Of a stretch of DNA of 64,000 bases, positions 4,594 to 52,690 are shown in pieces; the first letter of the stretch is position 1, and each line of letters opens with the position of its first letter. The DNA lies in NCBI RefSeq assembly GCF_963678975.1, contig NC_089274.1:31807053-31871052 (forward strand), read 5' to 3'. Origin of the DNA: Dysidea avara. Taxonomy: Eukaryota; Porifera; Demospongiae; Dictyoceratida; Dysideidae. The position numbers were made by a program, and so were the translations under genes. The notes below the pieces were generated by a model. It worked only from the letters and a program-made list of their open reading frames with translations. It ran no database searches and was not told the origin of the DNA.

Positions 4594-7500
4594 ATCAAGA
4601 TACTCTAATAGAGCAGTCACTTACTCTAATATAGCAGTCAGGAAATGCTGTTAAGTCAGCTCTTGAGCATAACTTTGATTTTGAAAGCATAATTTTGAGC
4701 ATAATAGGTTTGAATTTTGAGTAGTGCTCAAAAGCATAATAGCGAAGCACAATTAGAATTAAGCCAGCACATTTTGTAGTATTTGTATACTACAAAATTG
4801 GCCGGCTTTGGGTTTTTTTTAACCCATGTGTTTTTTTCTTTACCACAGGAAGAAGAAAAGAACTTAAAGAAGATTTTTTATACTTCAATTATTTTTGATT
4901 TTATTATTAATTATACAAATTATATACGTATATTTATTACATGCCCATTATTCCCCACAGGATATTATTTTGCAGCTGATCTCTCTACTGGGTGACTTGA
5001 AATGTAGCTGAACTATCTATTAGGTGACCTCTTCTAGCTGATCTCTCTACAGGGTGATTTGTTTCTAGATGAACTCTCTACAGGTGATTTGTTAGCAGCT
5101 AAACTCTCTACATGGTGGTTTCTTTGTAGCTGAACTCTCTACACGATGGTTTCTTTGTAGCTGAACTCTCTACAAGGTGACTTCTTCTAGCTGAACTCTC
5201 TACAGGGTGATCTTTTTGTAGCTGAACTCTCTACAGGGTGATTTGTTTGCAACTGAACTCTCTACATGATGGTTTCTTTGTAGCTGAACTCTCTACAAGG
5301 TGACTTCTTCTAGCTGATCTCTCTACAGGGTGATTTGTTTCTAGCTGAACTCTCTACAGGTTATTTGTTTGCAGCTAAACTCTCTACATGGTGGTTTCGT
5401 TGTAGCTGAACTCTCTACACGATGGTTTCTTTGTAGCTGAACTCTCTACAAGGTAACTTCTTCTAGCTGATCTCTCTACAGCGTGATTTGTTTCTAGTTG
5501 AACTCTCTACAGGTGATTTGTTTGCAGCTAAACTCTCTACATGGTGGTTTCCTTGTAGCTGAACTCTCTACATGATGGTTTCTGTGTAGCTGAACTCTCT
5601 ACAAGGTAACTTCTTCTAGCTGAACCCTCTACAGGGCGATTTGTTGTAGTTGAATTCTCTACAGGGTGATTTATTTGAGGCTGAACTCTCTACATGGCAG
5701 TTTCTTTGTAACTGAACACTCTACAAGGTGATTTCTTGTAACTGATCTTTCTACAGGGTGAATTGTTTATAGCTGAACTATCTACAAGGTAACTTCTTCT
5801 AGCTGATCTCTCTACAGGGTGATTTGTTTGTATAGATGAACTATCTACAAGGTAACTTCTTCTAGCTGATCTCTCTACAGGGTGATTTGTTTGCAGCTGA
5901 AATCTTTACATGATGGTTTCTTTGTAGCTGAACTCTCTACAAGGTGACTTCTTCTAGCTGATCCCTCTACAGGGGGATTTGTTTGTAGCTGAACTCCCAA
6001 CAAGTGATTTATTTGCAGCTGACCTCTTTATGTGGTGGTTTCTTTGTAGCTGAACTCACTACAAGATGACCTCTTCTAGCTGATCTCTCTCCAGGGTGAT
6101 GTGTTTCTAGCTGAACTCTCTACTGGTGATTTGTTGCAGTTAAACTCTCTACGTAGTGGTTTCTTTGTAGCTGAACTCTTTACAAGGTGACTTCTTCTAG
6201 CTGAACTCTCTACAAGGTGATTTCTTTGTAGCTGAACTCTCTACATGATGGTTTCTTTGTAGCTGAACTCTCTACAAGGTGACCTCTTCTAGCTGATCCT
6301 TCTACAGGGCGATTTGTTTGTAGTTGAATTCTCTACACAGTGATTTGTTTGAGGCTGAACTCTCTACATGGCGGTTTTTTTGTAGCTGAACTCTCTACAA
6401 GGTGACCTCTTCTAGCTGAACTTTCTACAGGGTGACTTGTTTCTAGCTGAACTCTCTACAGGTTATTTGTTTGCAGCTAATCTCTCTACATGGTGGTTTC
6501 TTTGTAGCTGAACTCTCTACATGATGGTTTCTTTGTAGCTGAACTCTCTACAAGGTGATTTGTTTGCAGCTGAACTCTCTACATGGTGGTTTCTTTGTAG
6601 CTGAACTCTCTACATGATGGTTTCTTTGTAGCTGAACTCTCTACAAGGTGATTTGTTTGCAGCTGAACTCTCTACATGATGGTTTCTTTGTAGCTGGACT
6701 CTCTACAAGGTGACCTCTTCTAGCTGATCTCTCTACAGGGTGATCTTTTTGTAGCTGAACGCTCTACAGGGTGATTTGTTTGCAGCTGAACTCTCTACAT
6801 GATGGTTTCTTTGTAGCTGAACTCTCTACAAGGTGACCTCTTCTAGCTGATCTCTCTACAGGGTGATCTTTTTGTAGTTGAACGCTCTACAGGGTGATTT
6901 GTTTGCAGCTGAACTCTCTACATGATGGTTTCTTTGTAGCTGAACTCTCTACAAGGTGACCTCTTCTAGCTGATCTCTCTACGGGTGATTTGTTTCTAGC
7001 TGTGTGAACTCTCTACAGGCGATATGTTTGCAGCTGAACTGTCTACATGGTGGTTTCTTTGTACCTGAACTCTCTACAAGGTGACTTGTTTCTAGCTGAT
7101 CCCTCTACAAGGTGACTTCCTCGAGCTGATCTCTCTACAGGTTGATTTGTTTGTAGCTGAACTCTCTACAGGGTGATTTGTTTGCAGCTGAACTCTCTAC
7201 AGGGTGATTTGTTTGTAGCTGAACTCTCTACAGGATGGTTTCTTTGTTACTGAACTTTCTACAAGGCAACTTTTTTCTAGCTGATCTCTCTACAAGGTGA
7301 CTTCCTCTAGCTGATCTCTCTATAGGGTGGCTTGTATCTAGCTGAACTATCTACAGGATGATCTGTTCATAGTTGAACTCTCTACAGGTTAATTTGTTTG
7401 TAGCTGAAATCTCTTGTTTCAAACTGATCTCACTGTAGCATAACTTCTTTGTAGCTGAACTCTCTACAGAGTGATTTTTTTTGTAGCTGAACTGTATATA

Positions 7501-9074
7501 GGGTGATTTGTTTGTACCTGAACTTTCTACAGGGTGATTTGTTTATAGCTGAATGTTCTGCAGGGTGATTTGTTTGTAGTTGATCTCTCTACAGGGTTTC
7601 TTTGCAGCTGAGTTCTCTACAGGGTGACTTCTTCTAGCTGAACTCTCTCTTGTTTCTAGCTGATCTCTCTACAGAGTAACTTGTTTGTATAGCTGAACTC
7701 TTTACAGAGTAGTATTTTGGTTGCTGAACTCTCTACACGGTGACTTGTTTGTAGCAAAATTCTTTACAGAGTGACTTGTTGGTAGCTGAATCCTCTACAG
7801 AGTGACTTACTTGTAGCTGAATTCTCTACAGAGTGACTTACTTGTAGCTGAACACTGTATAAACTATAAAGTGACTTATCTGTAGCTGAACTTTCTTAGG
7901 TTTACTTGTTTGCAGGTGATCTCTATAGGGTGACTTGTTTTTATAGATGAACTCTTTACAGGGTAGTTTCTTTGTAGCTGAACTCTCTCCACAGTGACTT
8001 GTTTGTAGCTGAATTCTCCAGCGAGTGTAGCCGAACTCTCTACAGGGTGCATGACTTGTTTATAGCTGAACTCACTTCAGTGTGACTTGTAATGTTCTGA
8101 ATCACTACAGCGATATATTTGTAGCTGAACTCTCTATAGGGTGACTTGATTCTTGCTGAACTGTCTATAAGATTAACTGTTTGCAGCTGAACTCCCTACA
8201 GAATAACCTGTAATGTAATAGAATTCTATAATGGAGTAAATAAATTAGCTGAATGCTCTATTAGGGTGACTGTTCTATTAGAGTATCTCGATCTCGCATT
8301 TGCTACACGGAGTTGGCTTTCGAATCATAACTCAGTGGTTTGTATTCCAATTCTTCTATACTACTGCAAGGACTTTCAATGAAGATTATTCCAGCTATAC
8401 ACCGATTTTCAGCTCATTGCTCTAAGCGGTTTGCCTAGTAGGCGCGAAAACTAAATTTTTTTTTTATTCCTAAAAATCGATCGCGTAATTGTGACACAGG
8501 TTGGGTTTTGTGTCATATCTCTGTGGTCTTTATCTCGATTCCTTTCAAACCACCAAAAGGCACTCCTACGATGGTTACTCCATCTACATAGCAATTTTCA
8601 ACTCATTCCATGAAGCGGTTTACCCTGTAGGCGTGACAACAAATCGATCTTGTTTTACGCGAATAATCGGTCATAACTCCTGAATCATTCATCGGATTTG
8701 CACCAAAGTTGATGCTAGGATTCGCTTTTGGACTCCCCTTCTGTGTGCCAAATTTCAAGGCGAGCGGAGTACGCGTTTGCGTTTTATAGCAATTTTTGCA
8801 AGTGTGCGAAAAGACGAAGAAGAAAAAAACGAAGAAAAAAAAATAAAACTTTGGCCACTCGTATCTCGGAAATGGCTTGAGTGATTTCCATAAAATTTGG
8901 AATGTAGACTCCCCTAGCTGGCGGGCAACTCTGCAGCAAATTTGGTTCCAATCGGATAAGGTATCACCGAGATACAAATGTGTGAAAATGACGTTTTCTT
9001 TCTTCCTGTCAATATACTCACGGTGTGGCGCGCCGGCTTCTTGGGCCACACGACACACTATCGTGTGTCTTGAT
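4594..9074 (+). mobile_element. Satellite-bearing composite element, copy B (complete)
   Basis: Starts ATCAAGATACTCTAATAGAG (4594) and ends CGTGTGTCTTGAT (9062-9074), so the extreme ends form a short inverted pair ATCAAGA(T/C)AC. Order: motif CTCTAATAGAGCAGTCAC twice (4601-4640), unique AT-rich part with hairpin TTTTGTAGTAT/ATACTACAAAA (4768-4797), 31-bp array (4975-8240), the same motif inverted (8250-8290), and the tail (8290-9074). The tail contains a purine-rich stretch at 8808-8855 and two diverged copies of a CGATTTTCA...GCGGTTT...GTAGGC module. No transposase or RT seen, so non-autonomous or a satellite-carrying relic. It sits inside the intron of the tetraspan gene. Confidence 0.7.
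4975..8240 (+). repeat. 31-bp minisatellite array, about 100 copies
   Basis: Unit about 31 bp: TAGCTGAACTCTCTACA plus a variable (A/G)GGTGATTTGTTTG-like half. Subtypes alternate (GTGATTTGTTTG, ATGGTTTCTTTG, GTGACTTCTTC). Groups of 3-4 subtypes recur together around 6430-7000, indicating higher-order copying. The array decays toward 7400-8240. Every unit contains the palindromic AGCT and the TCTCTACA block. No open reading frame runs through it. Confidence 0.95.
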
Positions 9075-9369
9075 CACATGCCATTTACTACACAAAGAAT
9101 TACTCTACAAGAACAAGCAAATCTGATGGTGTGCAGGTTTCTTTGATTTAAACCTTATTTAATTGTACACTGAAGCAATTAAAACATGTATAATTTTATG
9201 TGGCATGTCTATTTTTTGTCTAAATAGAATTTTATGCAGGTTTTCACTCAGCTGGTCACATTTTTATAAGAAAACTGTCATTTAAATTTGCACTATGAAT
9301 GAACTGTGTGTAATGTTACTCTACAGCTCTTGTGAATATAGGATCAACATCCAAGATAACGCATTTGTC

Positions 9370-9465
9370 TACATGTGATGCAATGCAGTCTAATTCAATG
9401 TGATACCACACATGTGATAAAATGCAGCTTAATTCAATGTGATACTACAATGCAGTGTAATTCAT
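9370..9465 (+). repeat. Short tandem repeat, about 37 bp x 2.5
   Basis: Repeats of ATGTGAT(G/A)(C/A)AATGCAG followed by TTCAATGTGATAC inside the tetraspan intron. The remainder of 9075-9529 has no recognised feature. Confidence 0.7.
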
Positions 9466-9529
9466 TATAAACAATAAGCATCACACAAAGCAGTACATGC
9501 ATGCATGTTACAACATCCTTCAAACTTAC

Positions 9530-11935: not shown

Positions 11936-12159
11936 GCACTTGTAACTATACTGTTTGAGCAAAATTAATTTAATACACAGGTACACACTTCGTAACGTCA
12001 CAAAGAATTGGAGTTAAGAGAAGGCTCTTACTCTAATAGAACACACAGGACAAACATACAAACGTAATTGGCATTGGCCTGCCCATACACCTATCAAATG
12101 TGCTACTATATACTTTTCCAACAGTCCATATGCGGTGTAGCAATACCAGGATGCTATGA
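11936..12159. other. Unassigned; contains one degenerate motif copy
   Basis: CTCTAATAGAACACAC at about 12031 is a diverged form of the recurring CTCTAATAGAGCAGTCAC motif. Nothing else recognised. Confidence 0.4.
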
Positions 12160-12848: not shown

Positions 12849-15260
12849 GTAAAACTTTCACACCTCAGATCAAAGGAGCCGCCTGGGCTACATTTCGTAT
12901 GTATCTCATCTAGCTGGGCTACTACATACGAAATGTAGCCGGTCTACAACTGGGCAGTGATTATATAGACGTTGATGCTGAAATCGATTGTGGGGATAGA
13001 TTAGGATCGATTAATACTGACTCATGTGATTGGGATGCACGACTTGGATTTCGCTATGAAAACCACTCAGGTGGAGAGCATTTTGCTATCCTCGCCATCC
13101 TACGAGTTGAAAAACGTTGGACTACGGTGAGAACTAGTGCTATAGCTTATTCATTCAATCATTTCCGCACGTTTTCGAATACGGACACGCCCCCATCACG
13201 AAGCTACCACTCTGCACGGAGTAACCACTCTACAAGTAAGCTTTCCTGTCTAGGCCTTTAGTGAACTGCGTAGTTTTCCCATAAACGATTCAATAGTACT
13301 GATTAAAACATTAAACTCGCGTAATGGAAATTCTCCGTGATATCTCTAGGATACGTCCGTTTATCATAACCGAACTTAACCAGAACGTACTAGCTGCTGA
13401 CCCATAATCGAAATTTTAGGTGTGCGTATATAATACATCCAGTAGCTGCACTCATATTGGCTTGGGTGATTGATCGCCCTACATAGGCTAACAAGTGTTA
13501 CATATTAGCTGTAACACAGGGCATTCGGGCTTTGCCTGATATGTATGTGCCTGCAGTCGGGCATACATATCAGGCAAAGCCCTCATGCCCATGTTACAAC
13601 TATTTCACAGGGGCGGATCTAGGATATATAAAAGGGGGGGGGGGGCTAACTCAAGGTACTAATCTCTTGGGTAGAGGTGTGCGAAGTACACTTCCCAGCA
13701 TGCAAAGCATGCTGGAACTAGGGGGGTCTGGGGGCATGCTCCCCCAGGAAAATTTTGAAAAATAGATGCTAAAATACTGCAATTTGGAGACATTTCCACA
13801 TAAAATTCATAATATTTTCTGCCTGTAGATATTTCATATACTGCCTTTAGATTATAGGTATGGCTCTCTGAAGCATTTTGCTAATGGAAAAGTTTGGGTA
13901 GGTACATACAGCCAAGTACATGATGCACCCCTCTCACAATTGCACAACACTGAATAGGTGCATGTTAGAATAATAATGTTGAAAGTGGAAAATTTAGAAA
14001 TTTGAACAATACAAGATTGAATCTGAGAGCATTTTCAATGGAAATTGTGTACATGAATTAAGTATTTCCATACATATTAACTACACAAGTAGATGAATGA
14101 AGCCCTTTAAACAGACCAATGCACTTCATTGTATGTATAGGTGCAGGCAGATTTGGCATAACAGAACCAACTACATGTTTCCAGTGAATGTTCTATTAGA
14201 GTAGTTAGCTAACTGCTCTATTAGAGTATCTCAATCTTGTACACCTCCAATGCTGATCCGGGTCCTTGTTGCATAAACTTTAGCATAAATCCACTGATAA
14301 TGATACCTTGGAAAGATGTTTATAAGGTGGTTTTATGAGTATTTGTATTATTAGTGATCATATAATTATGCTAAGACAAAATTTCATTATAATACTCAGC
14401 ATATTGATCAAGTAAAGCCTAAATATGAAGGGGGGGCTTCAGCCACCAAAGCCCCCCCCCCTGGATCCGCCCCTGTTTCATACTTGCCCTCATGCAGGCC
14501 TGCAGCCATAGCCCTCTGGCGCGTGTGTATGTATCAGGAAAAGCGCTTGTGTCCATGGTATATGTAATAGTTGTAACACGGGAATGAGGGCTTCGACTGC
14601 CCGAGGGCAGAGGGCATACATATCAGGCAAAGCCCGAATGCCCGTGTTACAGCTAATATGTAACAATTATTAGGCTGATAGCCTGTACAGGGCGATCAAT
14701 CACGCAAGCCAATACGAGTGCAGCCACTGGATGTATTATATAAAATTTTTGAAAATAGGTCAGCAGTTAGTACGTTCTGGTTAAGTTCGGTTATGATAAA
14801 CGGACATATCCTAGAGATATCACGGAGAATTTCCGTTACGCGAGTTTAATGTTTTAATCAGTACTATTGAATCGTTTATGGAATAACTACGCAGTTCACT
14901 AAAGGCCTAGGACAGGTAAGCTTGCTTGTAGAGTGGTTACTCCGTGCAGAGTGGTAGCTTCGTGATGGAGGCGTGTCCGTATTCGAAAACGTGCGGAAAT
15001 GATCGAATGAATAAGCTATAGCACTAGTTTTCACCTTAGCCCAACGTTTTTCAACTCGTAGGATGGTGAGGATAACAAAACGCTCTCCATCTGAGTGGTT
15101 TTCATAGCGAAATCCAAGTCGGTGCATCCGAGTATTGATCGATCCCCACAATCGATTTCAGCATCAACGTCTATATAATCACTACCCAGTTGTAAACCGG
15201 CTACATTTCGTATGTAGCCCGGGCGCCGGTTCCTTTGGTCTGAGGTGTGACGGTGTTACA
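12848..15260. mobile_element. 2.4-kb foldback-type element with hairpin-ended arms
   Basis: The left arm (12848-13590) and right arm (14513-15260) are reverse complements over about 700 bp. Ends are TGTAA(A/C)AC plus CACACCTCAGA(T/C)CAAAGGA. The inner end of each arm is itself a hairpin built around GGCATACATATCAGGCAAAGC (left 13520-13585; right 14590-14650). The outer 100 bp contains a smaller palindrome (TACATTTCGTATGTA-like, 12892-12925 and 15203-15220). Flanked by TA microsatellite on both sides. No transposase; the central spacer is occupied by a second element (13608-14475). Confidence 0.8.
13608..14475. mobile_element. CAGGGGCGGATC-ended MITE nested in the foldback element
   Basis: Begins CAGGGGCGGATCTAGG and ends CCTGGATCCGCCCCTG, a terminal inverted repeat extended by G-rich/C-rich runs (13630-13645; 14449-14461). 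Flanked on both sides by TTTCA (13603-13607, 14476-14480), a 5-bp target duplication. It contains a copy of the CTCTATTAGAGTATCT motif at 14214-14232. A second member is at 25154-25471, also with a 5-bp duplication. Confidence 0.8.
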
Positions 15261-17150: not shown

Positions 17151-17354
17151 TAGAGCAAAACGTTTAGGGATAAAAACTACATAACTGTCTTTCTTCACGT
17201 CCGTGACCTATTTTTAAACGCATATACAATGATAACACCCATTCTCAAGCAAATTTGCTTCTTGTAGGTTCACTTTGCCATTGATCTTCTGACTTAGTCT
17301 CTGCAAGGGTAACCAACGTGTTAATAAGTCTCCAATCTATTCTGGGTTAACATG

Positions 17355-18036
17355 CAGTGTTGGGCAAGTTACTTTGTAAAAGTAACTAGTTACATATTAC
17401 ATATTACTTGCAACAGAACTATTTAGTTACAGTTACATATTACCCATAAAATAAAGTAACTGTAATAATATTACATATTATATTACTTTGTCCACAGCCT
17501 TAAGCTGTTAACATGTAGTGTTGGGCAAGTTACTTTGTAAAAGTAACTAGTTACATATTACATATTACTTGCAACAGAACTATTTAGTTACAGTTACATA
17601 TTACCCATAAAATAAAGTAACTGTAATAATATTACATATTATATTACTTTGTCCACAGCCTTAAGCTGTCACGTGTGAAACTACCACCTTATCACGTGAC
17701 ATGATTGCATTGTTGGACAATGTGCAAATCTTGGTTATAAGTAAGAAGCTAGTGAATAAGCTTCATTCAGTAGGCCTCGTTACTTCGTTGTGGTTAGGCG
17801 TTACTCAGAGGATTACTAACGAGATTAGTAACTTTGTTACTTTTAGTAATAATATTACGTCATATTAGACTCGTTACAGCAATTATATTACTTAGGTAAC
17901 GCGTTACATTTGTAAATAAAGTATCTTGCATTATATTACCTGTTTTCATAGCGTATTTCGTTATATTACTTTGTTACCACAAAAGTAATAATATTACATA
18001 ACGCGTTACTTATGTAACGCGTTACTCCCAACACTG
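17355..18036. mobile_element. hAT-family MITE with 8-bp target duplication
   Basis: Left end CAGTGTTGGGCAAGTTACTT and right end GTAACGCGTTACTCCCAACACTG-type (right TIR CAGTGTTGGGAGTAAC), typical of non-autonomous hAT elements. Flanked by TTAACATG on both sides (17347-17354 and 18037-18044). The first 161 bp, including the left TTAACATG, are tandemly duplicated (17347-17507, 17508-17668). No transposase. Confidence 0.92.
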
Positions 18037-21424: not shown

Positions 21425-22945
21425 AGGCGTGTTGTATACGTGTGTGTAGGTGCAGTGAACATGTAAGCCACATTCAGTGGACGACTTTCCTTCACTGTAA
21501 AGCCATTCAACATTGTATTATCCATATGCAAAAGTAAATATCAACCATACTACCACGTCATTGATTTATTAATATATTGTTAAGTTGTATTCATAAACGA
21601 TGCAAAGAGAATATACATTGCATTGTGTATACATAAACAATATAGTGCCAGTTACTTCTTGACATTTTGCGTGATACATCTGTTTAATCTTTACTTAACA
21701 TACTTTGATCACAGCAATGTTATTTATACTAAACAAGACTACACCAAGATGGAGCAATGTGCCACTCAACATGGTTTTGTCCAGCTTATATGTTTGGACA
21801 TCAAGTGTTGCCTGATGAACAACAAAGCTGTATAGTGATCTACTGTCTACAGGTTATGAAACCAAAGAGGTACATTAATCAAAGCCAAGACAGACTTCTT
21901 TTGGTGATTCAATCACCAGGAACCAATCAGAGAACAAGCTATAAGGTATCAAATACTATACTTTAGGCCATCATTATTATATTGCTTGTTTCCTATCACT
22001 CAATGGGACAAAAAGTGATGCAGGTGGGAGGTGATAATTGATTATTAATTATACACTTAACTCTTGTCTCAGTCTCTGACTGCTCTATTAGAGTATCTTG
22101 ATCTTGAAGGTTGCCAGGAATGTACACCCATGTAGCCTGTTGAACGAGAATGGAGGGGCTTTCACCCTTCTTCCATGCTTATATGCACAGCTAATGCATT
22201 TACTTAAATTAAAAACTTGGTCACTCTGTGCCTCCTTCTATTATAAAATAGTGCATTCATGTGATCTATAATCAAATAAATAAAATTTGGTACGGGTACT
22301 AAAAATTGATGCAGGTGGTGACGGGAAACAAGGAATTTAATAATGATGGCCTTATATATGTGTGTGTGTGTCGTACTGTATAATCCTAACAGAAGAAATA
22401 TACATGCGATGATTAAAAATGAAGTAAGATGTTACAGTATTGATCAAGAGTACAACTGAAGGCTCATCATGGTAAAACTGACAATCCTCAGGATGCTCTC
22501 GAATTATAAAAGGAGTTCATCACTACTAATACAACACCTTCACAATGACATTAAGAAACTGAACTATACCAGGCAAGATACAGTATCTTTCCAGGTACGT
22601 GAACTAAACTAATAAGTATCCTCCACAGTATCACATCTTCATCCTATTAATAATGTTAAGTTGTATGCATCAAACATGCAAAGAAAATACATACAAACCA
22701 GTCTGGAGCATCTGAGTGGTCCTCTACTGAAGTGTGCAAGTATGCCATTTGACTGGACATCTTTCTTCACTATGGAGTTGTTCAACATTGCGGCATTCAA
22801 CATTAGTGCATGATACCATCAAATCCTAACAGAAGGGAGCAAGATAAATACTGAAAAGGATGTCACAGTATTTATCAAGAGTAGAAATGAAGGCTCATCA
22901 TGGTGAAACTGATGATAGTCTTAGACACTATTGGCAGAAAAGTAT
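21425..22945 (+). repeat. Diverged dispersed duplication (three partial copies)
   Basis: GTTAAGTTGTAT(T/G)CAT...GCAAAGA(G/A)AATA occurs at 21580 and 22655; CTTTC(C/T)TTCACT...CATTCAACATTG at 21488 and 22765; CACAGTATT(G/T)ATCAAGAGTA...GAAGGCTCATCATGGT at 22430 and 22866. Together they indicate two or three old copies of one repeat with order shuffled. A copy of the CTCTATTAGAGTATCTTGATCTTG-type motif lies at 22083-22106, and TACTCTAATAGAACAGTAA / CACTCTAATAGAACAG at 23013-23052. Confidence 0.55.
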
Positions 22946-23202
22946 ACGTCGGCGGTGCAAACGGGTGCCCTTCACCAACTTTTCATTAGACATTGCTTAA
23001 GGCTAACATAGACATACTCTAATAGAACAGTAAATCACTCTAATAGAACAGATACTGTTTAATGTCTGTTAAAAGCTGTAAGTAAACTAATTTACAAAGC
23101 CATAGTGAGATCTGTTTTAAAATACACTCTCACAGCTTCTAACACATGAACATTATCCTGCATAGAATTGGAGCAAATCCCCATGTAGATCCACATGAAT
23201 AA

Positions 23203-24994: not shown

Positions 24995-26000
24995 GTATTA
25001 CAGTATAGCTCGGTGTGAAAATCCCTACATTGTTATAACAATAGACAAATTTCATAATAATGAAAAAATTGACCGTTGTCCCTAGCAACCTAAATTTTAC
25101 ATTATTTGTAGGTGTCAATGTATTAAGTCACCTCTCCAAGTTATAAAAGGATAGCGGGGGCGGATACAGGGGGGGGGGGTCAAAGGGGGCTCTTGACCGC
25201 TCCAAAAATTTTTAGTATACAAGATCGAGATACTCTAATAGAGCAGTCACTCTAATAAAGCAGTCACAGTATTAGAACAGTGTGTAGTGAGCTATTTAAG
25301 GATTTTTGATTTTTATGTACTTTATCAGCTATAAATGCGTGGTTGGTGAGGTGGGCAGCTATTGTCAGCTGGCTGTGACCTTTTTTTTTTTTTTTGGTCT
25401 CAAACCAGAGACAGTGTAGTGCCTCAGTTCATTTTTGACCCCCCCTTTTTATAAGTCTGGATCCGCCGCTGGATAGTATATATAAATCATGAGATATGAC
25501 ATTTTGAAGTTGCAATTTCTCCATACATTGTCAATGAGAGGGGAAACAGTTGCCCCTTCTCGGTAATCACACAAATCATGGGATTTAAAGAATGTCATAT
25601 CATCCATTTATAACTTGGAGAGATTATGACATTCACACCTACAAATTATGGGGATATATGTACTTTTGAATTTTTGGTTTTTGCATACATTGAAATACCT
25701 CATTTTTGTGATTGTCCAGAAGGGGAAACTGTAGCCCTCTCACACAGATATGTATGGGAAAACCACAGATTTCAAAATGTCATCTTATGACATATATACG
25801 CTATCCTTTCAAAATTTGGAGAAGTTATACTACTTCAATACTATTTTTAGACGTTATCACCTAAAAATAATGGGAAATTCAGGTTGCTAGGGGCAACGGT
25901 TATTTCTATATGTTATAAAGCCTTATTATGGAATTTGTCTATTATATATAGTTCAATGCCGAAGTAAGGATTTTCCCTCCAAGCTATGCTACCTATTGTA
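24995..26000. mobile_element. 1-kb inverted-repeat element, interrupted by a MITE
   Basis: 24995-25125 and 25845-26000 are reverse complements (CAATAGACAAATT, CATAATAA, ACCGTTG(T/C)CCCTAGCAACCT). The interior also folds: AAAGGATAG(C)...TATATA at 25147 and 25480 versus CGCTATCCTTT at 25800. A GGCGGATCC-ended MITE is inserted at GGATA (25149). Confidence 0.65.
25154..25471. mobile_element. GGCGGATCC-ended MITE (second member)
   Basis: Left GCGGGGGCGGATACAGG and right TCTGGATCCGCCGCT with G/C runs just inside, as in the element at 13608-14475. Flanked by GGATA (25149-25153 and 25472-25476), again a 5-bp duplication. It carries CAAGATCGAGATACTCTAAT followed by AGAGCAGTCAC and a second CTCTAATAAAGCAGTCAC at 25221-25267. 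Excision would rejoin AAAAGGATA with GTATATA, which pairs with the opposite arm of the host element. Confidence 0.75.
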
Positions 26001-29896: not shown

Positions 29897-31195
29897 CTAA
29901 ACTGTTTCTCACGATCGTCTTTTACAAAAACTATGGGCTGTTGGAATAACTGGAACAGTTTGGAAGTGGTTCCAAGCGTATCTGAAGCAACGATACCAAT
30001 GCGTCAAGGTTGGGGACTCATTTTCAGATCTATGTAATGTTTTATCAGGAGTTCCTCAGGGAAGTGTCCTTGGACCCTTACTGTTTGTCATTTTCATCAA
30101 TGATTTACCCGAACATATTCAATTCGCAATTCCCTTTATCTTTGCAGATGACACCAAGTGTCTATGTAAGATTAGATCTTCTGATGACACTGAGAAATTA
30201 CAAACAGATATCAACAATGCCTTTATCTGGAGTATTACATCAGAACTATTTTTTAATTATTCCAAATTCGTTCATCTTCGCTTCTGGGCCAAAGACTCAT
30301 TAGACCATTCAATTTATAGCATTAATGGACAGCCAATCCCTTGTTTATCACACCACAAAGATCTTGGGGTAATATTCACATGTGACTTCAACTGGACAGC
30401 CCACTATTCATCTATTTCTGCAAAAGCTTATAAAATTTTAGGTCTTATCAGGAGAACTTTTAAAACCAATTGTATGGAAGCCAAGAAAAACTTGTACATC
30501 TCATTAGTAAGATCCCAACTAATCTACTGCTCACAAATGTGGAGACCGCAATTAATAAAAGACATAACATTACTAGAACGCATACAACGAAGAGCAACTA
30601 AGTATATTTTAAATGACTACACCTCTACCTATAAATTCAGACTGGAACAACTAAACCTCCTACCACTAATGTACATCTATGAAATAAATGACCTTATGTT
30701 CTTAATAAAATCATTGAAATCGACTTTGAAATTAGAGACCATATTACCTTTACCAGTAACTCTACTAGATCAGGGACACATCACAAGCTAACCCATCCTA
30801 GAACAACATCAGCGGTACAGCGTCACTTTTACTTCAATAGAATCACACGACTTTACAACAACCTCCCAGTTATTAACATTTCATTACCAACTAACATTAT
30901 CAAACGCCAATTAATCCAACACTTATGGACTCATTTTTACAATAATTTCAATTCTGATCGAGCCTGCACTTTTCACCTTCTTTGTCCATGTCATCGCTGC
31001 TCCAGTGTGCCTATATCTGTAAACTTCAATGAACTGTAACTATAATTCTGTAATTAACGGTAACTAAAATTGTTTATTTATTAATTTTTTTTTTTTCACC
31101 TTGGATGTCAGCACCTGTTGCTGGCATACCTTCAGCATGCAATTTTGATTTTACTTGCACGCATGCTGTAAAGCTAAATAAATAAATAAAATAAA
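29897..31195 (+). pseudogene. LINE ORF2 reverse transcriptase, 5'-truncated, one frameshift
   Basis: A continuous frame from about 29907 to 30791 encodes VSHDRLLQKLWAVGITGTVW (RT domain 3 region), LSGVPQGSVLGPLLF (domain 4), then FIFADDTKCL, the F-A-D-D catalytic box, HHKDLGVIF and SLVRSQLIYCSQMWRPQL, then LERIQRRATKYIL. Near 30715 the frame shifts and the protein continues: DFEIRDHITFTSNSTRSGTH, RHFYFNRITRLYNNLP and CTFHLLCPCHRC, ending with TAA at 31037-31039. Then come a 3' UTR and an AATAAATAAAT tail (31175-31195). The missing 5' part (endonuclease and early RT) is typical of incomplete reverse transcription. Only one lesion was noticed in about 370 codons, so the insertion is fairly young. 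Clade not assigned. Confidence 0.9.
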
Positions 31196-35474: not shown

Positions 35475-35884
35475 GTTAAGTACGTATAGGTAGTAATCTA
35501 TATTATAAGACTGAAAAGCCGTCCGTCCGTCTGTCTGCATTCCATTTGATGTCAGGCATGTACTCTTGAACCGCTGCACGTTTCGAAGCGTCTTTGTGTC
35601 TAAATAAGCGCTCATTATCCAGCTCTACAATGACGGTTTCGAAAAGTTCGTGCAAGCTATCGTTTGTCCGTTACCGCTCTTTAAACGCGAAGGTGTAGAA
35701 GAAAAATGGCTTAAATTCTTTCTATAAACCGCAAGTAGACACCTATATCTCAGTCCATTTGTACAGGTCTTTATAAGACAAAAATAAAGGTGTAGCCTCG
35801 GGTGTAGGGCAGGTAGGTGAATGGGTTAGACAGCCGCCTTACGTGTAAAAGTTGTGGGTTCACTTCCAGTTGGTGATAACTTTT

Positions 35885-36010
35885 TTTTTTCCGATTTGGG
35901 CACCTTTTCAGTACACTTTTTTTTCGATTTGGGCACCTTTTCAGTACACTTTTTTTTCGATTTGGGCACCTTTTCAGTACACTTTTTTTTCGTTCAGGTA
36001 CCTTTTCAGT
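35885..36010 (+). repeat. 33-bp tandem repeat, about 3.5 copies
   Basis: Unit CGATTTGGGCACCTTTTCAG plus TACACTTTTTTTT, inside the Helitron 5' region. Both strands are open through it (a lysine-rich peptide on the minus strand), which is an effect of a repeat length divisible by three. Confidence 0.9.
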
Positions 36011-36176
36011 GTACCTTTTAGTCACTCTGGGTACCTTTTGAAACTTCAATGTGTACCGTCAGTTCGAATCCTGTACTGTATATGACTGTAAACACATGAT
36101 CATACACGTTACATTTGCAGAGACTGTACACACGTGATATTGCAAATTCAAATTTCAATTGATGTGCTGTGTAAGC

Positions 36177-37411
36177 ATGCCGCCTAAGCGAAAACGATCG
36201 TCTACCTTTTGTGCGTCTCAAGCAAAGAGACACAAGCAGAACCAAAGATTAGATCCAGCGAAGAGACAGGAAGAAGCAGAACGACAAAGACTGCGCCGCC
36301 AGGAGGCTTCAACTCGACAAGTGCCAGGTGTGAAGTCGACTCACAACATAGACGAAGACAACGTGACGCAGAAGCCCATCGTGTGGCCCGCCAGGACGAA
36401 GAAAGAAGATCACAGGAACGGATCCGCGATGCATCTGCCCGCCGACTGGCGCGTGAGGACCCAGCCACCAGAGAAGAGCAACAGCGCAATACAGCTGCCC
36501 GTCGACTTGCGCGTGAAGACCCAGCCACAAGGAGGGAGGAGCAACAACAAAATACAGCTGCTCATCAAGAATCTCGGGCTGATCCACGCTACAGAGCTCA
36601 GGAGCAGCAGGCTAACACCACACGCAGACAACAGGTACGTGCAAGCACACAGCCAAGCTTTAGGGGTTTAACTATCAGCCACACAACTTCTTCAACACTA
36701 CAGATGTAGGCGCACTTAGTGTAGAATGCACACACTGTGGCGCATTAAAATTTCCCGAGGAGACGGAATCCCTTTGTTGCTTGAAGGGAAATGTCCAGTT
36801 AGAGGCATTTCCACAGCCTCAGTCATTCTTAAGACACCTGTATGAAGGTACGGACTCAGCAGGTAGACATTTTCTACATAACATACGCAAGTACAATAGT
36901 GCATTTCAAATGACAAGCTTCGGCTGTAACGAGATAACTATGGCTGGCTTCAATCCTTCTTTCAGAGTACAGGGTCAGGTCTGTTATCGTATAGGTAGTT
37001 TAGTTCCATCAGCAAATGAGTCTCCTAAATTTTCCCAAATTTATTTTATTGGCAATCAGCAAACTGAATTAGCTACTAGATCTGGAATAGTTGATGGGTT
37101 AAGGCTTGACATAGTTAGGGGCATTAATGAGCTTTTGCATGACAATAATCACTATGTTCAGCTTATTAAAGTAGCTAAAGAAATATTTGAGCTGCATGAT
37201 GAGCCAGCGAATGTTAGGGTAGTGATTAACGAGAACAAACGGCCCGTAGGAGAGCATGCTAGGAGGTATAATAGCCCGATGTGTGACGAGGTAGGATTGC
37301 TAATGCCTAATGATAATGTAAATAATAGGGACATAGTTTTGCACTATAGGGATGGGTCTTTGCAGCGCATTTCTGAACTTCATAGGGGATATGATCCTTT
37401 GCAGTATCCTT
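36177..37411 (+). pseudogene. Helitron-like protein, N-terminal domain, part 1 (frameshifted)
   Basis: ATG at 36177 (MPPKRKR) opens a basic region. The main frame then shifts to that of 36209 (repeats of ARRLAREDPATR) and again to that of 36685. From there: CTHCGALKFPEETESLCC (zinc-binding CxxC/CC), FLHNIRKYNSAFQMTSFG, FRVQGQVCYRIGSLVPS, FSQIYFIGNQQTELATRSG, RRYNSPMCDEVGLLMP, RDIVLHYRDGSLQRISELHR and GYDPLQYPL. These are hallmark blocks of the Helitron helicase-like N-terminal domain. It is interrupted in YPL by the hAT-like insertion; the 8-bp target duplication GTATCCTT is at 37404-37411. Two frameshifts and truncation make it non-functional. Confidence 0.9.
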
Positions 37412-37647
37412 TAGAGTTGCACCGATAATCGGTTGAATTATCGGTAACAGCCGATATTAGCTAATTTTACAAGTATCGGTATCGGCTACGAAGCGGAAAT
37501 AATTTGCCGATTAACCGAAACCCACAATCAATCGTTAATGACGGCAATGAACAGGTGAAAGTAAAGAAAGAAGGTGGTGAATGTAGCAGTAAGTGGTTGT
37601 AACTGTTTTGGCTTGTTTGTTTGCACAAGTATGGTTGCAAGGCTATA

Positions 37648-38295
37648 TGTGACTGGATTTTGGAAAAACGATCCAAATCGCACATTAGAAGTTCCGAGAT
37701 AAACGGTTTTAAAGAATTGAAGCCAGCATAACTCTCCAAGGATAGCAAGCACGCGTATGAAATTTACACAAAAGATGCATCAATCTGTTACCTTTCAAGC
37801 CACTTCCAGTACTTGTAGCTGCTTGTACAGTTTCCCGCCAAATAAGATAGAAAATCTGAGCAGTTGGACGAGCGAAGTAGTATCACGAGTGCTCACAAAG
37901 GGGTGGAGGCTGGGGGGTGGCGGGGAGGGCAAAAGTTAGACCTCAAAATGGAGGCAGACCACGATTGGAGTCCAGACACGAGATTACAGGGCTGTGCTGG
38001 CTCCTTAGTGGCTGATATGTAGCAAAGTCAACAGAGAACACGTCTGGCCAACATTATAAGGCTGTCCACCAGTAAACCACTGACTCTTGCCAGGCCAGGT
38101 CCTTCACAAGGCCTGAAACCGCCATTTGAGCACTCCACACCACCCAAAAAAGACGTGTGTAAATACCAGCCTCGTGTAGTTTGGGTAGTGCTGAGGGTCA
38201 AAACTTGTAGTACGATAGTGTAGCTATCCACTGGTGGTGTTAGTTTGATTTTGCCTGATGTGCGATTTGGATCGGTTCTGTAAAATCTGGTCACA
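37648..38295 (+). mobile_element. TGTGAC-ended MITE, copy 1 within hAT
   Basis: Ends TGTGACTGGATTTTGG and CTGTAAAATCTGGTCACA, flanked by TATA on both sides. The inner inverted match includes CGATCCAAATCGCACAT. Nearly identical to 38460-39106; diverged relatives are at 46524-47158 and 48593-49244. Confidence 0.85.
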
Positions 38296-38459
38296 TATAA
38301 ATTATTTCTGGAGCATCACGTGAGATCACGTGACCTGCCAAGAATCCTGGAGCAGTGGAAAGAAGTCTGGTCAGTGTGTGGTGGCTGGCACTGGTCATGG
38401 AGTGATTCCAAAGTATGTTTTTGTGTGTTTGGCTCCTTTACAGCCAGATGAGTATTATA

Positions 38460-39106
38460 TGTGACTGGATTTTGGAAAAACGATCCAAATCGCACATTAG
38501 AAGTTCCGAGATAAACGGTTTTAAAGAATTGAAGCCAGCATAACTCTCCAAGGATAGCAAGCACGCGTATGAAATTTACACAAAAGATGCATCAATCTGT
38601 TACCTTTCAAGCCACTTCCAGTACTTGTAGCTGCTTGTACAGTTTCCCGCCAAATAAGATAGAAAATCTGAGCAGTTGGACGAGCGAAGTAGTATCACGA
38701 GTGCTCACAAAGGGGTGGAGGCTGGGGGGTGGCGGGGAGGGCAAAAGTTAGACCTCAAAATGGAGGCAGACCACGATTGGAGTCCAGACACGAGATTACA
38801 GGGCTGTGCTGCTCCTTAGTGGCTGATATGTAGCAAAGTCAACAGAGAACACGTCTGGCCAACATTATAAGGCTGTCCACCAGTAAACCACTGACTCTTG
38901 CCAGGCCAGGTCCTTCACAAGGCCTGAAACCGCCATTTGAGCACTCCACACCACCCAGAAAAGACGTGTGTAAATACCAGCCTCGTGTAGTTTGGGTAGT
39001 GCTGAGGGTCAAAACTTGTAGTACGATAGTGTAGCTATCCACTGGTGGTGTTAGTTTGATTTTGCCTGATGTGCGATTTGGATCGGTTCTGTAAAATCTG
39101 GTCACA
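38460..39106 (+). mobile_element. TGTGAC-ended MITE, copy 2 within hAT
   Basis: Same orientation and almost base-for-base identical to copy 1 (a one-base length difference and a few substitutions, e.g. CCCAAAAAAG vs CCCAGAAAAG). Flanks differ from those of copy 1 apart from the TATA bases, and 164 bp of other sequence separates them. Confidence 0.85.
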
Positions 39107-39483
39107 TATAGTAGGCTGTGTATATTTATCGGCCGCCCACGGAATTAGTTGATCACTCTTCACAAAGGGTCTGGAGTCCCACTAAAAACACTGTTTGATA
39201 AGCTGTCTTAGTTGTTTTATAACTACTTGGCTTCCTTTTCCATGAAAGGAGTTAGTTGCAAAACTAGAAAAATGGTAAAAGTCTGCTGCCCACGCAATTA
39301 ATTACATTGATATTACAAATGCAGTTTATACACATAAACTTTAGGTGATTTTCTGCTCCTCCTCTCCTGTTCTGAAGAATTGAAGAATATCGGTAAATAT
39401 CGGCATATCGGTTACAGGAATAGGCAAATAATCGGTATCGGTAAATGTGAAAAAATGCATATCGGTGCAACACTAGTATCCTT

Positions 39484-39798
39484 TACTCTTTTCCTATGGC
39501 AATGATGGATGGCACATCAACCTGAAATTGGCTAATGGTAGGAAATTAACAGCCATGGTGTATTACCGCTACCACATCATGGTTAGGCAGCAAGTACGGC
39601 TTTTCCAACAATTCCTGGTTAACACCTACTGTAAGATTGAAACTGAGCACTTACAGTTTCTCAGGCGTGAACAGAAGTCCCTACATGCTGATTGCTACCA
39701 GGATTTGCGGGATGCAATGGTAGATGGGGATGGTGACCCCAGGAATGTTGGTCGTAGGGTCATTCTACCATCATCATTCACCTCAATCAATTTATATT
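39484..39798 (+). pseudogene. Helitron-like protein, N-terminal domain, part 2
   Basis: Continues the frame of part 1 after the hAT insertion: LLFSYGNDGWHINLKLANGR, then YYRYHIMVRQQ, LFQQFLVNTYCKIETEHLQF, SLHADCYQDLRDAM and GRRVILPSSFT. These are the conserved GxxGWH, YYxYR, GRLFQQYLVDxYxKIE-like and LPSSF(T/V)G blocks of Helitron proteins. It stops at SSFTSINLY, where the family would continue with the HUH Rep nuclease; everything downstream is missing. Confidence 0.9.
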
Positions 39799-39854
39799 AG
39801 AATATTATGTATCAATCAACTAGCTATTAATCAGTAGCTAAACATGTTAATCAG

Positions 39855-47158: not shown

Positions 47159-47299
47159 TATGATAATGCAAGACATGTACGATCAATTAGCCCAATGCCA
47201 GTACAGTAATAAAGTTTGAAAAGCACAAGAAAGCTAACATAGCTATAATGGCTTAGGCCAAGCAGCGTAATTAGCGCAGTGGATATATTGTACTGAATC

Positions 47300-47370
47300 C
47301 TCTATTAGAGTATCACGATGACTAGAGTTCATTGTGATGACTGCTCCATTAAAAAGAGTAGCATCTTGAT
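47300..47370 (+). repeat. Copy of the CTCTATTAGAGTATC motif
   Basis: CTCTATTAGAGTATCACGAT at 47302 and a degenerate second half, GTGATGACTGCTCCATTAAA, at 47334. The rest of 47159-47831 is unassigned. Confidence 0.7.
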
Positions 47371-48250: not shown

Positions 48251-48259
48251 TGTGTGTGG

Positions 48260-48300: not shown

Positions 48301-48592
48301 ATGCCATTTTAGTTTTGTTGTTTCTTGAGCAAGAAACTAATTGGGAACCTGTTATGGGTGTCTTGGAAAAACACATTTTCATTATCAAGATAATATTATT
48401 GTTCTGATTTTCTACTTTGGGGCCATTGATCACGCCCAGTTGATACCAATGCACAAGTTTCATTTTATTGCTTACAATCTGTTTCAAGCCAAGGCTATGC
48501 CAGACCAAGTCCATGACTTAGTTTATGAGTCTAGCTTGATCTATTTTTCTTAAAGATATAGATTAAATATTGTAGTAATACAATTTTTCATA

Positions 48593-49244: not shown

Positions 49245-49254
49245 TAATTTTATT

Positions 49255-49480
49255 ATATAACAGTTATACCACGGCTGGGAGGGATTTGCTAATATATACA
49301 CCCAAAGCCCGAGGGCTGCGGGTGTATAATATCAGCAAATTCCAAGCAGCCGTGGTATAAATGATATATATTACTTGGGCCGCACTCACCTAATAGGTGA
49401 AAGAACTACTGAGAACTCATCCCTTTTATTTTATACAGTAGCATCTGAAGATCAATTATGGTTTTAATAGTGTGGGCTAA
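49255..49480. mobile_element. Hairpin-ended element, partial (one arm)
   Basis: AACAGTTATACCACGGCTGG...CCGTGGTATAA at 49260-49360 forms a long hairpin with a centre of CCCGAGGGCTGCGGG, then CACTCACCTAATAGGTG (49385-49401) and TTTTATTTTATA, as in 28375-29440. Only one arm is recognised. Confidence 0.6.
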
Positions 49481-49723
49481 TAGCCATCAGAACGTTATCC
49501 ATATGTTAAAACATCATTAATACATTACTATGCTTTAACATGCAATGTTAGAAAACTTGTGATTGTGGGATGGAGTTTATATTGTTATCATTTTTGTACT
49601 AAGTTTAGCCAACTAACTTTGATATTGGGACAGTAAGTAAGTTATTATATTAAGTTAAGTACTTAGGACTGTAAGTTACTGACCTGTTTCAAAGCAGTAG
49701 TAGTAGCTTTGCTTTTCCGTGGT

Positions 49724-50036
49724 CTGTTCAAAGGCTGATATGTGGTGGGTAGAAATACACATCCTCGATCGCCCAAACAATTATTTTGTGCCTTCATTAT
49801 CCTTTAGTAACAACCAACTAGTCTATCTTAGCAAATATACTCAGCTTAGTAACCAATACAAAAATGAGTTCCACAATACAAAGCTCTATGTTGCTCAATA
49901 TAACAAGTCAAAGCGCATTGGTTCTTTGGTATCAAAGTCATTGGCAAACCGCTTTCCCATGATATTGCCCAGGCGATATCTTGATATTTCCTGGGCAATA
50001 TGCGAGTTAAACACTGAGCGGTGCCTTTGAACACCC
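49724..50036. mobile_element. Possible small MITE with internal hairpin
   Basis: GTTCAAAGGC at 49727 is inverted as GCCTTTGAAC at 50023, and 49962-50001 is a 12-bp-stem hairpin (ATATTGCCCAGG / CCTGGGCAATAT). Weak evidence otherwise. 49481-49723 and 50037-52221 show no recognised gene or array. Confidence 0.4.
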
Positions 50037-52221
50037 ACGTTAAAGTGGTATATAAAATAATAAAATAGCAAATTACGGTATTATCAATAACATGAATGTT
50101 ATTGATCATCCCACATAAGGACAGGGCTGGATAAATGTATTTATCTTTGTTTGTCCTTTTTGTAGAAATCAAGATGTTAAACTGATACTCCGTTAAACTG
50201 ATACTCAAAGAATTATCCTAAACAGAAATAAAACAGTTCGTAACTCTTAAATTAATGAATAGACTGTGTGAGTTTACATTTAGTCTAATCTATGCTAAGA
50301 AATTCTAATTGTATTTTGTGAACATTCTATTCCAATTTGGGCAATTTGCGAACACATGGCATGCATGTTTTTAATTGAAGTATCAGGGCTGGTAAAATAC
50401 AATAGGTAACCTGAGTGAAGGAGTGATCTTCAAAAATATAACCACCAAAATTCTGACATTTCTTAATCCGCATTGAAAATTTGTAGGTATATGGTCAGTA
50501 AAATGTAGTTCAAGAAATGTACACAAATGATGATTTGCTCAGTTGATCCCATGTGCATCACAGTACGCAGGTTTAAACCTTAAATGATATAAGGGTATAA
50601 TTGTTAATTTAAAGGATGAAAATTTTGTGGATAGCCAAATTCCACGAATAATACGCCCAGTACAATTCAGTATCCATGGTAAACAGTGGACAACCAAAGC
50701 TTCAGCCTTTTATGATGAATAGTGTTGGAGTTGGAATGTAACAGCAAGAAATTTAATTTCAATCTATTTACCAGCAAATCTGTCAAAATATAGTGTTTTC
50801 CCTCTATTCTTCATGTGTACAAAGAAAACCATTCCCAGAAAGCAATGACAAAAGTAAACTTCATGTCTATTGCATTGCAACTAACTCGCATGCGTTTTGC
50901 TATAAGTTTTCTCACTCTCCATGCATGAATACATGCTAGGTACCAAAGAAAGGCATTCGTTCAGCTAGTTAAGAATTCCTAAGTGACCACAATTATTTTA
51001 ATGTCATTTTGAGGGACTCCATCCACTGTAACACTGCTGAGAACAAGTGACACTACAAAGTAATTATGACACAAATTATTAGGATGCACTTTTATCATAA
51101 CCAACAATGTTACTTCACATACAAATTTCACCTATCATAGCTACTGTACATCATAAACAATCCAGACCTGCTGGACCCATATTACATTGATTAGATACTG
51201 TATAGTGTCTGTCTACTGAACATGCTCAAAGGCATTTATAAATGACATCAACCTAGTACGTTTTGGTGGCACTACATCCATCAGCAGCACTTCTAGTGCT
51301 ACTGATGCACTTGCTTGTGCATATCCAGCAAATTCGCAGCAATGAATATATACTACTCTGGTGAACGATCAGCTTATTACCAAACATGGGAGGAATTATG
51401 TATATAGTGCAGATTTTATTTGTGTTTCATCTTCCAGTTGTATTGGTAGGAAAGAACATGCACGTTAGAGGTTTTGCAGGGAATGTTCACATAATATGTG
51501 CGCAGACATTGTGGGTGAATTTACATACCAAAACCCACAATACGTTACAAAATTCATAGCTACATGTCAACCCTCAATATTATACATATTTGCTAGAGAT
51601 AGCCACTTGTTACAATGGCTTTTTAGCATATCCCAGTAAAACTTCTCGCTTTGTACTTTTAAAAATCAATGTAGAATCCTCAATCCACTAGTCAGTGCAT
51701 ACATGCCTAAGGAATGTGTACTGCAAAACCTCTATGTATATACACTGCAATACATTTATTTCATTTTCACAATTTTAACATATATAGTTAACTTTCGTGG
51801 ACAATGTATTTGTGTTTGTGTGGTTATCTGCACAGTATGTGTACACAACCAAAAAGTTCATGAGTGCTACACACAACACAGCACATTGATAATATGACTG
51901 AACACCTTGAGAAAACAGTTTTTAGTTTCGTATGGTTGATGAAAGGGATTCAGAGAATATCCCTCACTTAGACCTGTGTACAGAGTTGCTGTATGTTGAG
52001 TACACATTAGTTGGGCCAGTTGCCAGCATCATACATAAAGCCCGTATGGTCCAAGGTACATCCATAAAAACACTGACCGCAGGTCGGGGAAACTTTGCCT
52101 CAACAAGATACCAAAACTGAAAGCTATGTATTCTATTGTTATCTCCATACTGAAATAATATTGCAAACAGTACAGTTCATACAAAGTTATACAAGAACAA
52201 GATACATCTTTTGTATCACTG
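50037..52221. other. No recognised content over 2.2 kb
   Basis: AT-rich; only short open stretches. A doubled CCGTTAAACTGATACTC-type piece near 50190 is the only repeat noticed. May be intron or intergenic DNA. Confidence 0.4.
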
Positions 52222-52499
52222 TAGGGCTCAAACAAATAGTGGTTTTTACTATTCGAATATTCTTTATTCACAACTACCGAATATTCGAATATTCTTTTTC
52301 AGCATTGGTATATGGACGAGATATCAATAATCCTGTTGTACAAGATGTCTCTTTAATACAATTCAGAATCAACATGATTTGATCATTTATGTCATAGATA
52401 TGCTTATGTAGGATCAAGAATTCTAAGTATTTACACACTGATGTTACGTATTTCCTTTGAAACGAATATTCGAATAATAGAATATTCGTTTGAGCCCTA
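52222..52499. mobile_element. hAT-type MITE, 278 bp
   Basis: Ends TAGGGCTCAAAC(A/G)AATA and its complement, with repeated ATTCGAATATTC inside both ends. Flanked by TATCACTG on both sides (52214-52221, 52500-52507), an 8-bp duplication typical of hAT. Too short for a transposase. Confidence 0.93.
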
Positions 52500-52669
52500 T
52501 ATCACTGTTTCAACTGGTTGACGATGATCCAGTGTCAGCTCCTACATGTATCAAATGAGATAGCTTTCACTCTGCATGCACAACACCACATAATACACAC
52601 AAAAAATGTTTAATGAATGTATCCACAGTTTCTAAATATAATTTTACCATCAAAAGATTCAAATAGCTA

Positions 52670-52690
52670 CTCTAATAGAGCAGTCATACT
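52670..52690 (+). repeat. Copy of the CTCTAATAGAGCAGTCA motif
   Basis: CTACTCTAATAGAGCAGTCA in otherwise unassigned sequence. A faint second copy is at 54860-54900 (CTACTCTAAAATAAC ... AGAGCAGTCGTCAT). Confidence 0.75.

What the first reader, a model, noticed from the sequence alone, without database searches (positions are those of the whole stretch)
4594..52690. A short motif centred on CTCTAATAGAG recurs about ten times in unrelated contexts
(ATCGAG)ATACTCTAATAGAG followed by CAGTCAC, often doubled within 30 bp, is seen at 561-612, 4597-4640, 8250-8290, 12031, 14196-14232, 22083, 23013-23052, 25221-25267, 47302 and 52670. Hosts include the satellite composites (both sides of the array, inverted), two GGCGGATCC MITEs, and otherwise plain DNA. 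The core is a palindrome (CTCTAATAGAG is nearly its own complement), and the flank CAGTCAC keeps one orientation relative to CGAGATA. Sharing one 25-bp motif between different element families suggests either a tiny mobile cassette, a recombination or protein-binding site that elements acquire, or a common ancestor.
Basis: seen in the sequence. Interest (0 to 1): 0.7.

Follow-up and report, generated by a model that had tools for sequence, protein, structure and literature searches.

The report
28-bp box shared by unrelated transposons
A 28-letter DNA box recurs tens of thousands of times in this genome, inside repeat families that otherwise look unrelated, and in the family where it could be measured best it changes far more slowly than the DNA around it, which suggests that many mobile elements carry the same docking site for some cellular factor.

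Summary
The window holds 12 matches (3 mismatches or fewer) where shuffles give 0.01. The 550.8-Mb genome holds 77,404 matches to the 21-mer (2 or fewer) and 50,659 to the full unit (3 or fewer); reversed-pattern controls give 0. The unit is a sharp-edged 28-bp box, AGATCGAGATACTCTAATAGARCAGTCA, in about half of contexts followed on the same strand by degenerate cores.

With the box masked, 12 host representatives fall into at least five groups that I could not relate: GGCGGAT-type MITEs, TAGGCA-type MITEs (most with 8-bp duplications, as hAT elements), the 31-bp satellite composites with a SINE-like relative, an AAGGCC-ended family, and a 164-bp satellite. In family A the box is 98% identical where other windows average 64%. 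No duplications flank the box, so a self-mobile cassette is not supported.

Best reading: a cis-acting binding site for a host factor, captured by several lineages and kept because it helps them propagate. Binding is inferred. Closest parallel: HIM-17 sites in C. elegans MITEs. The genome-wide empty-site search did not complete.

The parts
581..608 (-). 28-bp box (28/28) of composite A1, between its 31-bp array (192-568) and its body; partial core copy at about 563-580
192..1245 (+). composite A1: 31-bp satellite array, box, body, GC-rich hairpin-like end; right end read by eye, approximate
4592..4619 (+). 28-bp box (27/28) in a copy related to family B MITEs; second core at 4621-4641
4421..4742 (+). 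stretch homologous to family B MITEs (limits from pairwise alignments, approximate; its own ends were not located)
4969..9075 (+). composite A2: 31-bp array (4969-8201), box, body; right end read by eye, approximate
8267..8294 (-). 28-bp box (27/28) of composite A2; second core at about 8250-8266
12028..12048 (+). weak core copy, no AGATCGAG part
13608..14485 (.). MITE (family H), inverted ends CAGGGGCGGATC, flanked by TTTCA at 13603-13607 and 14486-14490
   Evidence: sequence; relative L055
14210..14237 (-). 28-bp box (26/28) inside that MITE; second core at 14184-14204
22077..22104 (-). 28-bp box (27/28) in DNA not assigned to a family
23006..23055 (+). weak pair of core copies
25155..25471 (.). 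MITE (family C), ends CGGGGGCGGAT / GGATCCGCCGCTG, flanked by GATAG at 25150-25154 and 25472-25476
   Evidence: sequence
25222..25249 (+). 28-bp box (28/28) inside that MITE; second core overlapping it at 25247-25267
47294..47321 (-). weak box copy
52659..52686 (+). weak box copy; only about the right 18 bp match

Best explanation
The box is a cis-acting site, most likely bound as double-stranded DNA by a host protein with a long recognition site. Several unrelated lineages of non-autonomous repeats (MITEs of several TIR types, the satellite composites and their SINE-like relative, a 164-bp satellite) obtained it by copying of sequence, and it was kept in their source elements because it helps them propagate, for example by opening chromatin or driving activity in the germ line. 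Shown here: the box, its edges, its copy number, its presence in at least five groups with no similarity that I could establish outside it, its slower change than its flanks in family A, and extra cores mostly downstream on the same strand. Inferred: that a protein binds it, which protein, in which tissue, and that binding aids propagation.
For: Sharp 28-bp edges over 27 contexts: 0.89 to 2.14 bits in every column inside, 0.26 at -9, 0.48 at +20. The left edge holds on contexts chosen by the 21-mer alone: 10 contexts, 7 to 10 of 10 agree in columns -8 to -1, 5 of 10 at -9. Genome counts 77,404 and 50,659, controls 0; density in 264 kb of window plus sample 148/Mb against 141/Mb genome-wide. 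Family A, 6 copies: box 0.981 mean pairwise identity against mean 0.636 and maximum 0.919 over 523 other windows; the same six copies found by flanks alone, flanks 71-89% identical to their queries, boxes 27-28/28. Host classes: exact 8-bp duplications in B 3 of 3, D 3 of 4, E3 2 of 3, E2 1 of 2, G 1 of 2 copies examined; 5-bp in H 2 of 2 and C 1 of 1. No link established between the five groups outside the box. Further cores: 16 downstream, 3 upstream, 0 inverted around 26 contexts, as in clusters of binding sites.
Against: No protein, binding or expression data. Many columns are near-invariant across families, unusual for a site evolved by mutation in each lineage, so copying must be assumed. 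MITEs need no transcription, so what one site would do for all hosts is guesswork. Constraint rests on one family of six copies, first found by box score. In family K the box is only 79% identical, hardly above the best other window (0.782), and family H has three copies, one of them chosen by the motif. Seven of the 20 sampled 10-kb stretches hold no box at 19 bits or more. The groups were compared through single representatives; the 164-bp satellite by 200 bp only, 58 of them masked; H-A just beats its shuffles (33 against 29, AT-rich). Short foldbacks, not among the 26 contexts, do carry inverted boxes.
Confidence: 0.45

Rival explanations
1. The box is a recombination or template-switch hub: being so common, it is where interrupted gap repair or ectopic recombination swaps halves between elements, and so it spreads as the join.
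For: Right flank cluster 0 (24 members, two places counted twice through overlapping loci) is joined to ten left clusters, among them MITEs with different TIRs. Six of 18 left clusters with two or more members have more than one right cluster. L049 and L039 share the left side and part inside the box. A and K share a body (A -814 to -240 with K -615 to -21) but the box lies next to it in K and some 220 bp on in A, with different DNA beyond.
Against: Twelve of those 18 left clusters have a single right cluster, and single-linkage clustering may join strays. It does not explain why the box changes more slowly than both flanks within family A.
Confidence: 0.22
2. Common descent: all host families derive from one old element and only the box stayed recognisable.
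For: Deeper alignment merges A with K, B with the foldbacks and L049, and D with E2; D and H share G-rich arms, H-G and H-A barely beat shuffles; most MITE hosts have hAT-like 8-bp duplications.
Against: Most pairs, 57 of 66, show nothing above shuffles outside the masked box, and structures differ. Single representatives were compared; profiles could reach further.
Confidence: 0.18
3. The box works as RNA: the complementary strand can form a hairpin around UGCUCU-AUU-AGAGUA, bound by a protein.
For: Among 60 distinct 28-mers, pair (2,14) would be G-U on that strand in 51, and the commonest variant (13 G to A) keeps a G-U pair there, 20 of 60.
Against: Only pair counts were made and only the five commonest types printed; no compensatory change stands out; the AGATCGAG part lies mostly outside the hairpin; MITEs need no RNA.
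Confidence: 0.08
4. A tiny mobile cassette that inserts itself.
For: Sharp edges and unlike contexts.
Against: No target duplication at the edges; no clean empty site seen in the parts of the 354-kb output that were shown (both cut); no terminal inverted repeat seen.
Confidence: 0.06

Closest known systems
HIM-17 m1m2 motif pairs in CERP2 and CELE2 MITEs, C. elegans (PMC9757741; start of abstract and 12 of 27 passages seen)
   Same: short motifs unlike known ones, in two MITE families, more than 4,000 pairs outside accessible DNA, slower to change than neighbours at promoters, bound by a host protein
   Different: there two related MITE families with the motifs in their inverted repeats and a known binder; here at least five unlinked groups, satellites too, one 28-bp interior box, no binder known
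CENP-B box-like motif in divergent Meloidogyne satellites (PMC9673304; passages seen)
   Same: short motif (17 bp there) conserved between repeats that are otherwise divergent
   Different: satellites only; the consensus is not found in our box; our boxes are dispersed
Conserved central domains of SINEs: CORE, V, Deu, Ceph (PMC3272025; passages seen)
   Same: conserved stretch shared by SINE families whose other parts differ
   Different: 62 bp in the example seen and described for SINEs; ours is 28 bp and lies mostly in TIR elements and satellite composites

Membership tests
TE-borne host-factor site (HIM-17 m1m2 type) | same motif in more than one transposon family | tested here: met
TE-borne host-factor site (HIM-17 m1m2 type) | motif more conserved than neighbouring sequence | tested here: met
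   family A only, 6 copies; family K not clearly (0.786 against best other window 0.782)
TE-borne host-factor site (HIM-17 m1m2 type) | bound by a host protein in vivo | not testable with these tools
   no binding data
TE-borne host-factor site (HIM-17 m1m2 type) | motif at promoters of host genes | not tested
   no gene annotation for this genome
CENP-B box | NTTCGNNNNANNCGGGN | tested here: not met
   consensus recalled: best 5 of 9 defined positions (printed as 11 of 15 with six free ones)
SINE central domain | lies in SINE bodies between head and tail | tested here: not met
   box sits in TIR elements with 8- and 5-bp duplications
tRNA-derived SINE (host family K) | tRNA-related head with A and B boxes | tested here: inconclusive
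   A- and B-box-like stretches read by eye in L026 and L049, B-like part in L055, not in L019; ARAGORN finds no tRNA in any of the four loci
Pol III internal promoter in the box | A box upstream of B box | tested here: not met
   consensus recalled: B-like match lies before the A-like one
lone B box (TFIIIC site) | GWTCRANNC / GGTTCGANTCC | tested here: inconclusive
   8 of 9 (two free) for the short form, 6 of 11 for the long form
self-mobile cassette | target-site duplication at the edges | tested here: not met
hAT-like MITE (hosts B, D, E2, E3, G) | TIRs with 8-bp duplication | tested here: met
   10 of 14 copies exact (B 3/3, D 3/4, E2 1/2, E3 2/3, G 1/2), two more 7 of 8
hAT-like MITE (hosts C, H) | TIRs with 8-bp duplication | tested here: not met
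   three copies have 5-bp repeats TTTCA, GATAG, GAAGG

The most novel reading that the evidence does not exclude
A 28-bp sequence serves as a genome-wide shared currency of mobile DNA: unrelated DNA transposons, SINE-like elements and satellites carry it, it is exchanged between them at its own edges, and a host factor that reads it acts on tens of thousands of sites, so that elements of different classes depend on one host protein.
Probability: 0.22. Interest if true: 0.85.

Novelty: new variant of a known kind. Interest (0 to 1): 0.62.

Why it matters
If binding is shown, this would be a very abundant factor site spread by several unrelated kinds of mobile and repeated DNA at once. It asks how elements with different ways of multiplying come to share one host dependence, and gives a system in which capture of regulatory sites by non-autonomous elements can be tested. 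A 28-bp probe would suffice to look for the factor.

Tried and rejected
Exact 17-mer in IMG/VR and in the prokaryote genomes: 2 and 7 hits, flanks without the box's left part, taken as chance; L009 shows a similar 20-bp tandem repeat but is ordinary bacterial sequence, titled Psychrobacter. Literature: motif letters (nine papers, judged by listing, none on repeats), sponge repeats, shared motifs. That the motif is not in print rests on those listings alone. CENP-B box, Pol III boxes and CTCF tested as recalled strings; a lone B box stays open. Spliced-leader relics were considered and not tested. A snRNA-promoter (PSE) role was not tested: the U6 family search rang in no genome, controls included, and the U6 DNA query did not complete. 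Empty sites: no clean one in the shown part (both outputs cut); the genome search with the joined flanks of the 22077 box was sent 13 times and never answered; nor was a count for family A. Rows dropped: instances under 12 bits everywhere and under 19 bits from context counts; instances within 80 bp of a better one on the same strand merged, 133 to 99; L033 and L034 overlap, so two places are counted twice there. My notes say 15 downstream cores; the recount is 16. The family K box value (0.827) rested on a gapped alignment; one search gives 0.786. After checking I raised the hub rival from 0.20 to 0.22 (mixed left clusters recounted) and lowered the novel case from 0.25 to 0.22 (the tRNA head is not confirmed).
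Full report
WHAT WAS CHECKED. Four of the ten places (12031, 23013-23052, 47302, 52670) are weak and keep mainly the core.

GENOME SCALE. The window lies in a 550.8-Mb assembly of 108 contigs, unnamed here. It looks to me like a marine invertebrate, perhaps a sponge; that is recall, not a result. The 21-mer (2 mismatches or fewer) occurs 38,572 + 38,832 = 77,404 times and the 28-mer (3 or fewer) 25,282 + 25,377 = 50,659 times; the reversed, uncomplemented controls gave 0. In 264 kb (window plus 20 stretches of 10 kb at set positions of contigs C1-C3) I count 39 at 2 mismatches or fewer, 148 per Mb against 141 per Mb genome-wide. Seven of the 20 stretches hold no box at 19 bits or more.

THE UNIT. 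A profile built from the 30 fetched exact hits found 133 instances of 12 bits or more in 354 kb, 99 after merging neighbours, two places counted twice. Keeping an instance of 19 bits or more only if the 40 bp on neither side resembled those of an earlier one left 27 contexts. Since the profile could favour its own flanks, I repeated the left side on contexts chosen by the 21-mer alone (10 contexts by the same rule): columns -8 to -1 agree in 7 to 10 of 10 and column -9 in 5 of 10. Extra cores (4 mismatches or fewer) near the box lie downstream on the same strand: 16 downstream, 3 upstream, 0 inverted, around 26 contexts, 12 of which have one or more downstream; the foldbacks of L048 and L051, not among the 26, do have inverted boxes. 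The 31-bp satellite unit looks like a lengthened version of the repeated core (by eye).

THE HOSTS. Ends and duplications: family B, ends TAGGCAC, exact 8-bp duplications in 3 of 3 copies; D, ends CATAGGCGGCGG, 3 of 4; E2, ends CAGGGCCGCC, 1 of 2; E3, ends CATAGGCGGTGG, 2 of 3 and 7 of 8 bases in the third; G, ends CATAGGCGGATC, 1 of 2 and 7 of 8 in the other. C and H, ends CAGGGGCGGATC and similar, have 5-bp repeats (TTTCA, GATAG, GAAGG). F, ends AAGGCCAATGAAA, is unclear. In one search the box lies 48 to 240 bp inside the left end. Families C, D and E share an interior that begins at the box, although their outer ends differ. Family K has A- and B-box-like stretches by eye in L026 and L049, the B-like part in L055 and neither in L019; ARAGORN finds no tRNA in these four loci, so 'SINE-like' is a guess. 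K's body matches that of the satellite composites A (z 79.6; A -814 to -240 with K -615 to -21): the box lies next to the body in K and some 220 bp further on in A. L054 holds a 164-bp tandem repeat with boxes.

HOW MANY UNRELATED HOSTS. The 27 contexts overstate it. With box and core copies masked, 66 pairs of 12 single representatives were aligned and compared with 60 shuffles each: 9 pairs beat every shuffle. A-K, D-E2, B-foldback and B-L049 look real, and foldback-L049 rests on a 15-bp word of that group. D-H rests on G-rich arms next to the ends, H-G and H-A are marginal (33 against 28 and 29; H-A is AT-rich), and F with the 22077 context (41 against 29) is unresolved. Merging the MITEs with G-rich ends to be cautious, I claim at least five groups: A/K; GGCGGAT-type MITEs (C, D, E, H, G); TAGGCA-type MITEs (B, foldbacks, L049); F; the 164-bp satellite, for which little sequence was compared.

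CONSTRAINT. Six copies of family A in window and sample: the box is 98.1% identical on average; 523 other 28-column windows average 63.6% and reach at most 91.9%. These copies were first found by box score; a search by left flanks alone found the same six, flanks 71-89% identical to their queries and boxes 27-28/28; of 21 rows in that search, four lack a box and are an internal duplicate of the family A body, two are misplaced alignments beside known boxes. Family H (3 copies, one chosen by the motif) gives 0.929 against at most 0.881 elsewhere. Family K does not show it clearly: 0.786 against a best other window of 0.782. Single copies do decay: the H box in the window differs from that of L055 at two bases. 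Selection on source elements during their evolution would fit better than host selection on every copy; this step is inference.

MOBILITY OF THE BOX ITSELF. No duplication at its edges beyond re-paired flanks (47 of 300 shuffles reach the observed mean; with a wider span 93 of 300). No clean empty site in the shown part of two cut outputs on 354 kb. The genome-wide empty-site search did not complete.

MECHANISM. I favour a binding site for a host DNA-binding factor, kept by elements because it aids their spread. Steps shown: existence, edges, number, unlike hosts, constraint in one family. Steps inferred: protein, binding, benefit. HIM-17 in C. elegans is the closest parallel: its m1m2 pairs sit in the inverted repeats of two related MITE families. 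A hub for exchange between elements is the main rival: ten left clusters join one right cluster, and 6 of 18 left clusters with two or more members have mixed right sides; both readings can be true.

KNOWN KINDS. Not a CENP-B box, not a SINE central domain, not a Pol III internal promoter in the usual order, by the tests made (consensus strings recalled); a near match to the short B-box form leaves a TFIIIC site open. As a kind, 'factor site shared by transposon families' is known; the spread over several TIR families and satellites and the 28-bp length make this a variant. I found no description of it; that rests on the listings.

Noticed in passing
window 58001-59873: 52-bp satellite, about 36 copies, 96% matches
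   Followed up: no
window 35884-39800: 33-bp tandem repeats followed by open frames, one with the Helitron_like_N domain at 39477-39800
   Followed up: no
window 29901-30791: open frame with a reverse transcriptase domain (RVT_1, 2e-11)
   Followed up: no
window 2089-2547 and 17346-17669: two tandem duplications, 230-bp and 161-bp units, 99% matches
   Followed up: no
L048:8664-8750 and L051:9896-9976: short palindromic foldbacks built from inverted boxes of the variant GATCGATATACTC
   Followed up: partly
L054:5432-5960: 164-bp tandem repeat with one near-intact (26-27/28) and one degenerate box per unit
   Followed up: partly
L042, L045 and the composite body at window 8295-9075: the body of family A holds an imperfect internal duplicate 187-189 bp from the box, which lacks the box
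   Followed up: partly
L009:4779-4857: contig titled Psychrobacter with a 20-bp tandem repeat that resembles the box core, taken as chance
   Followed up: yes
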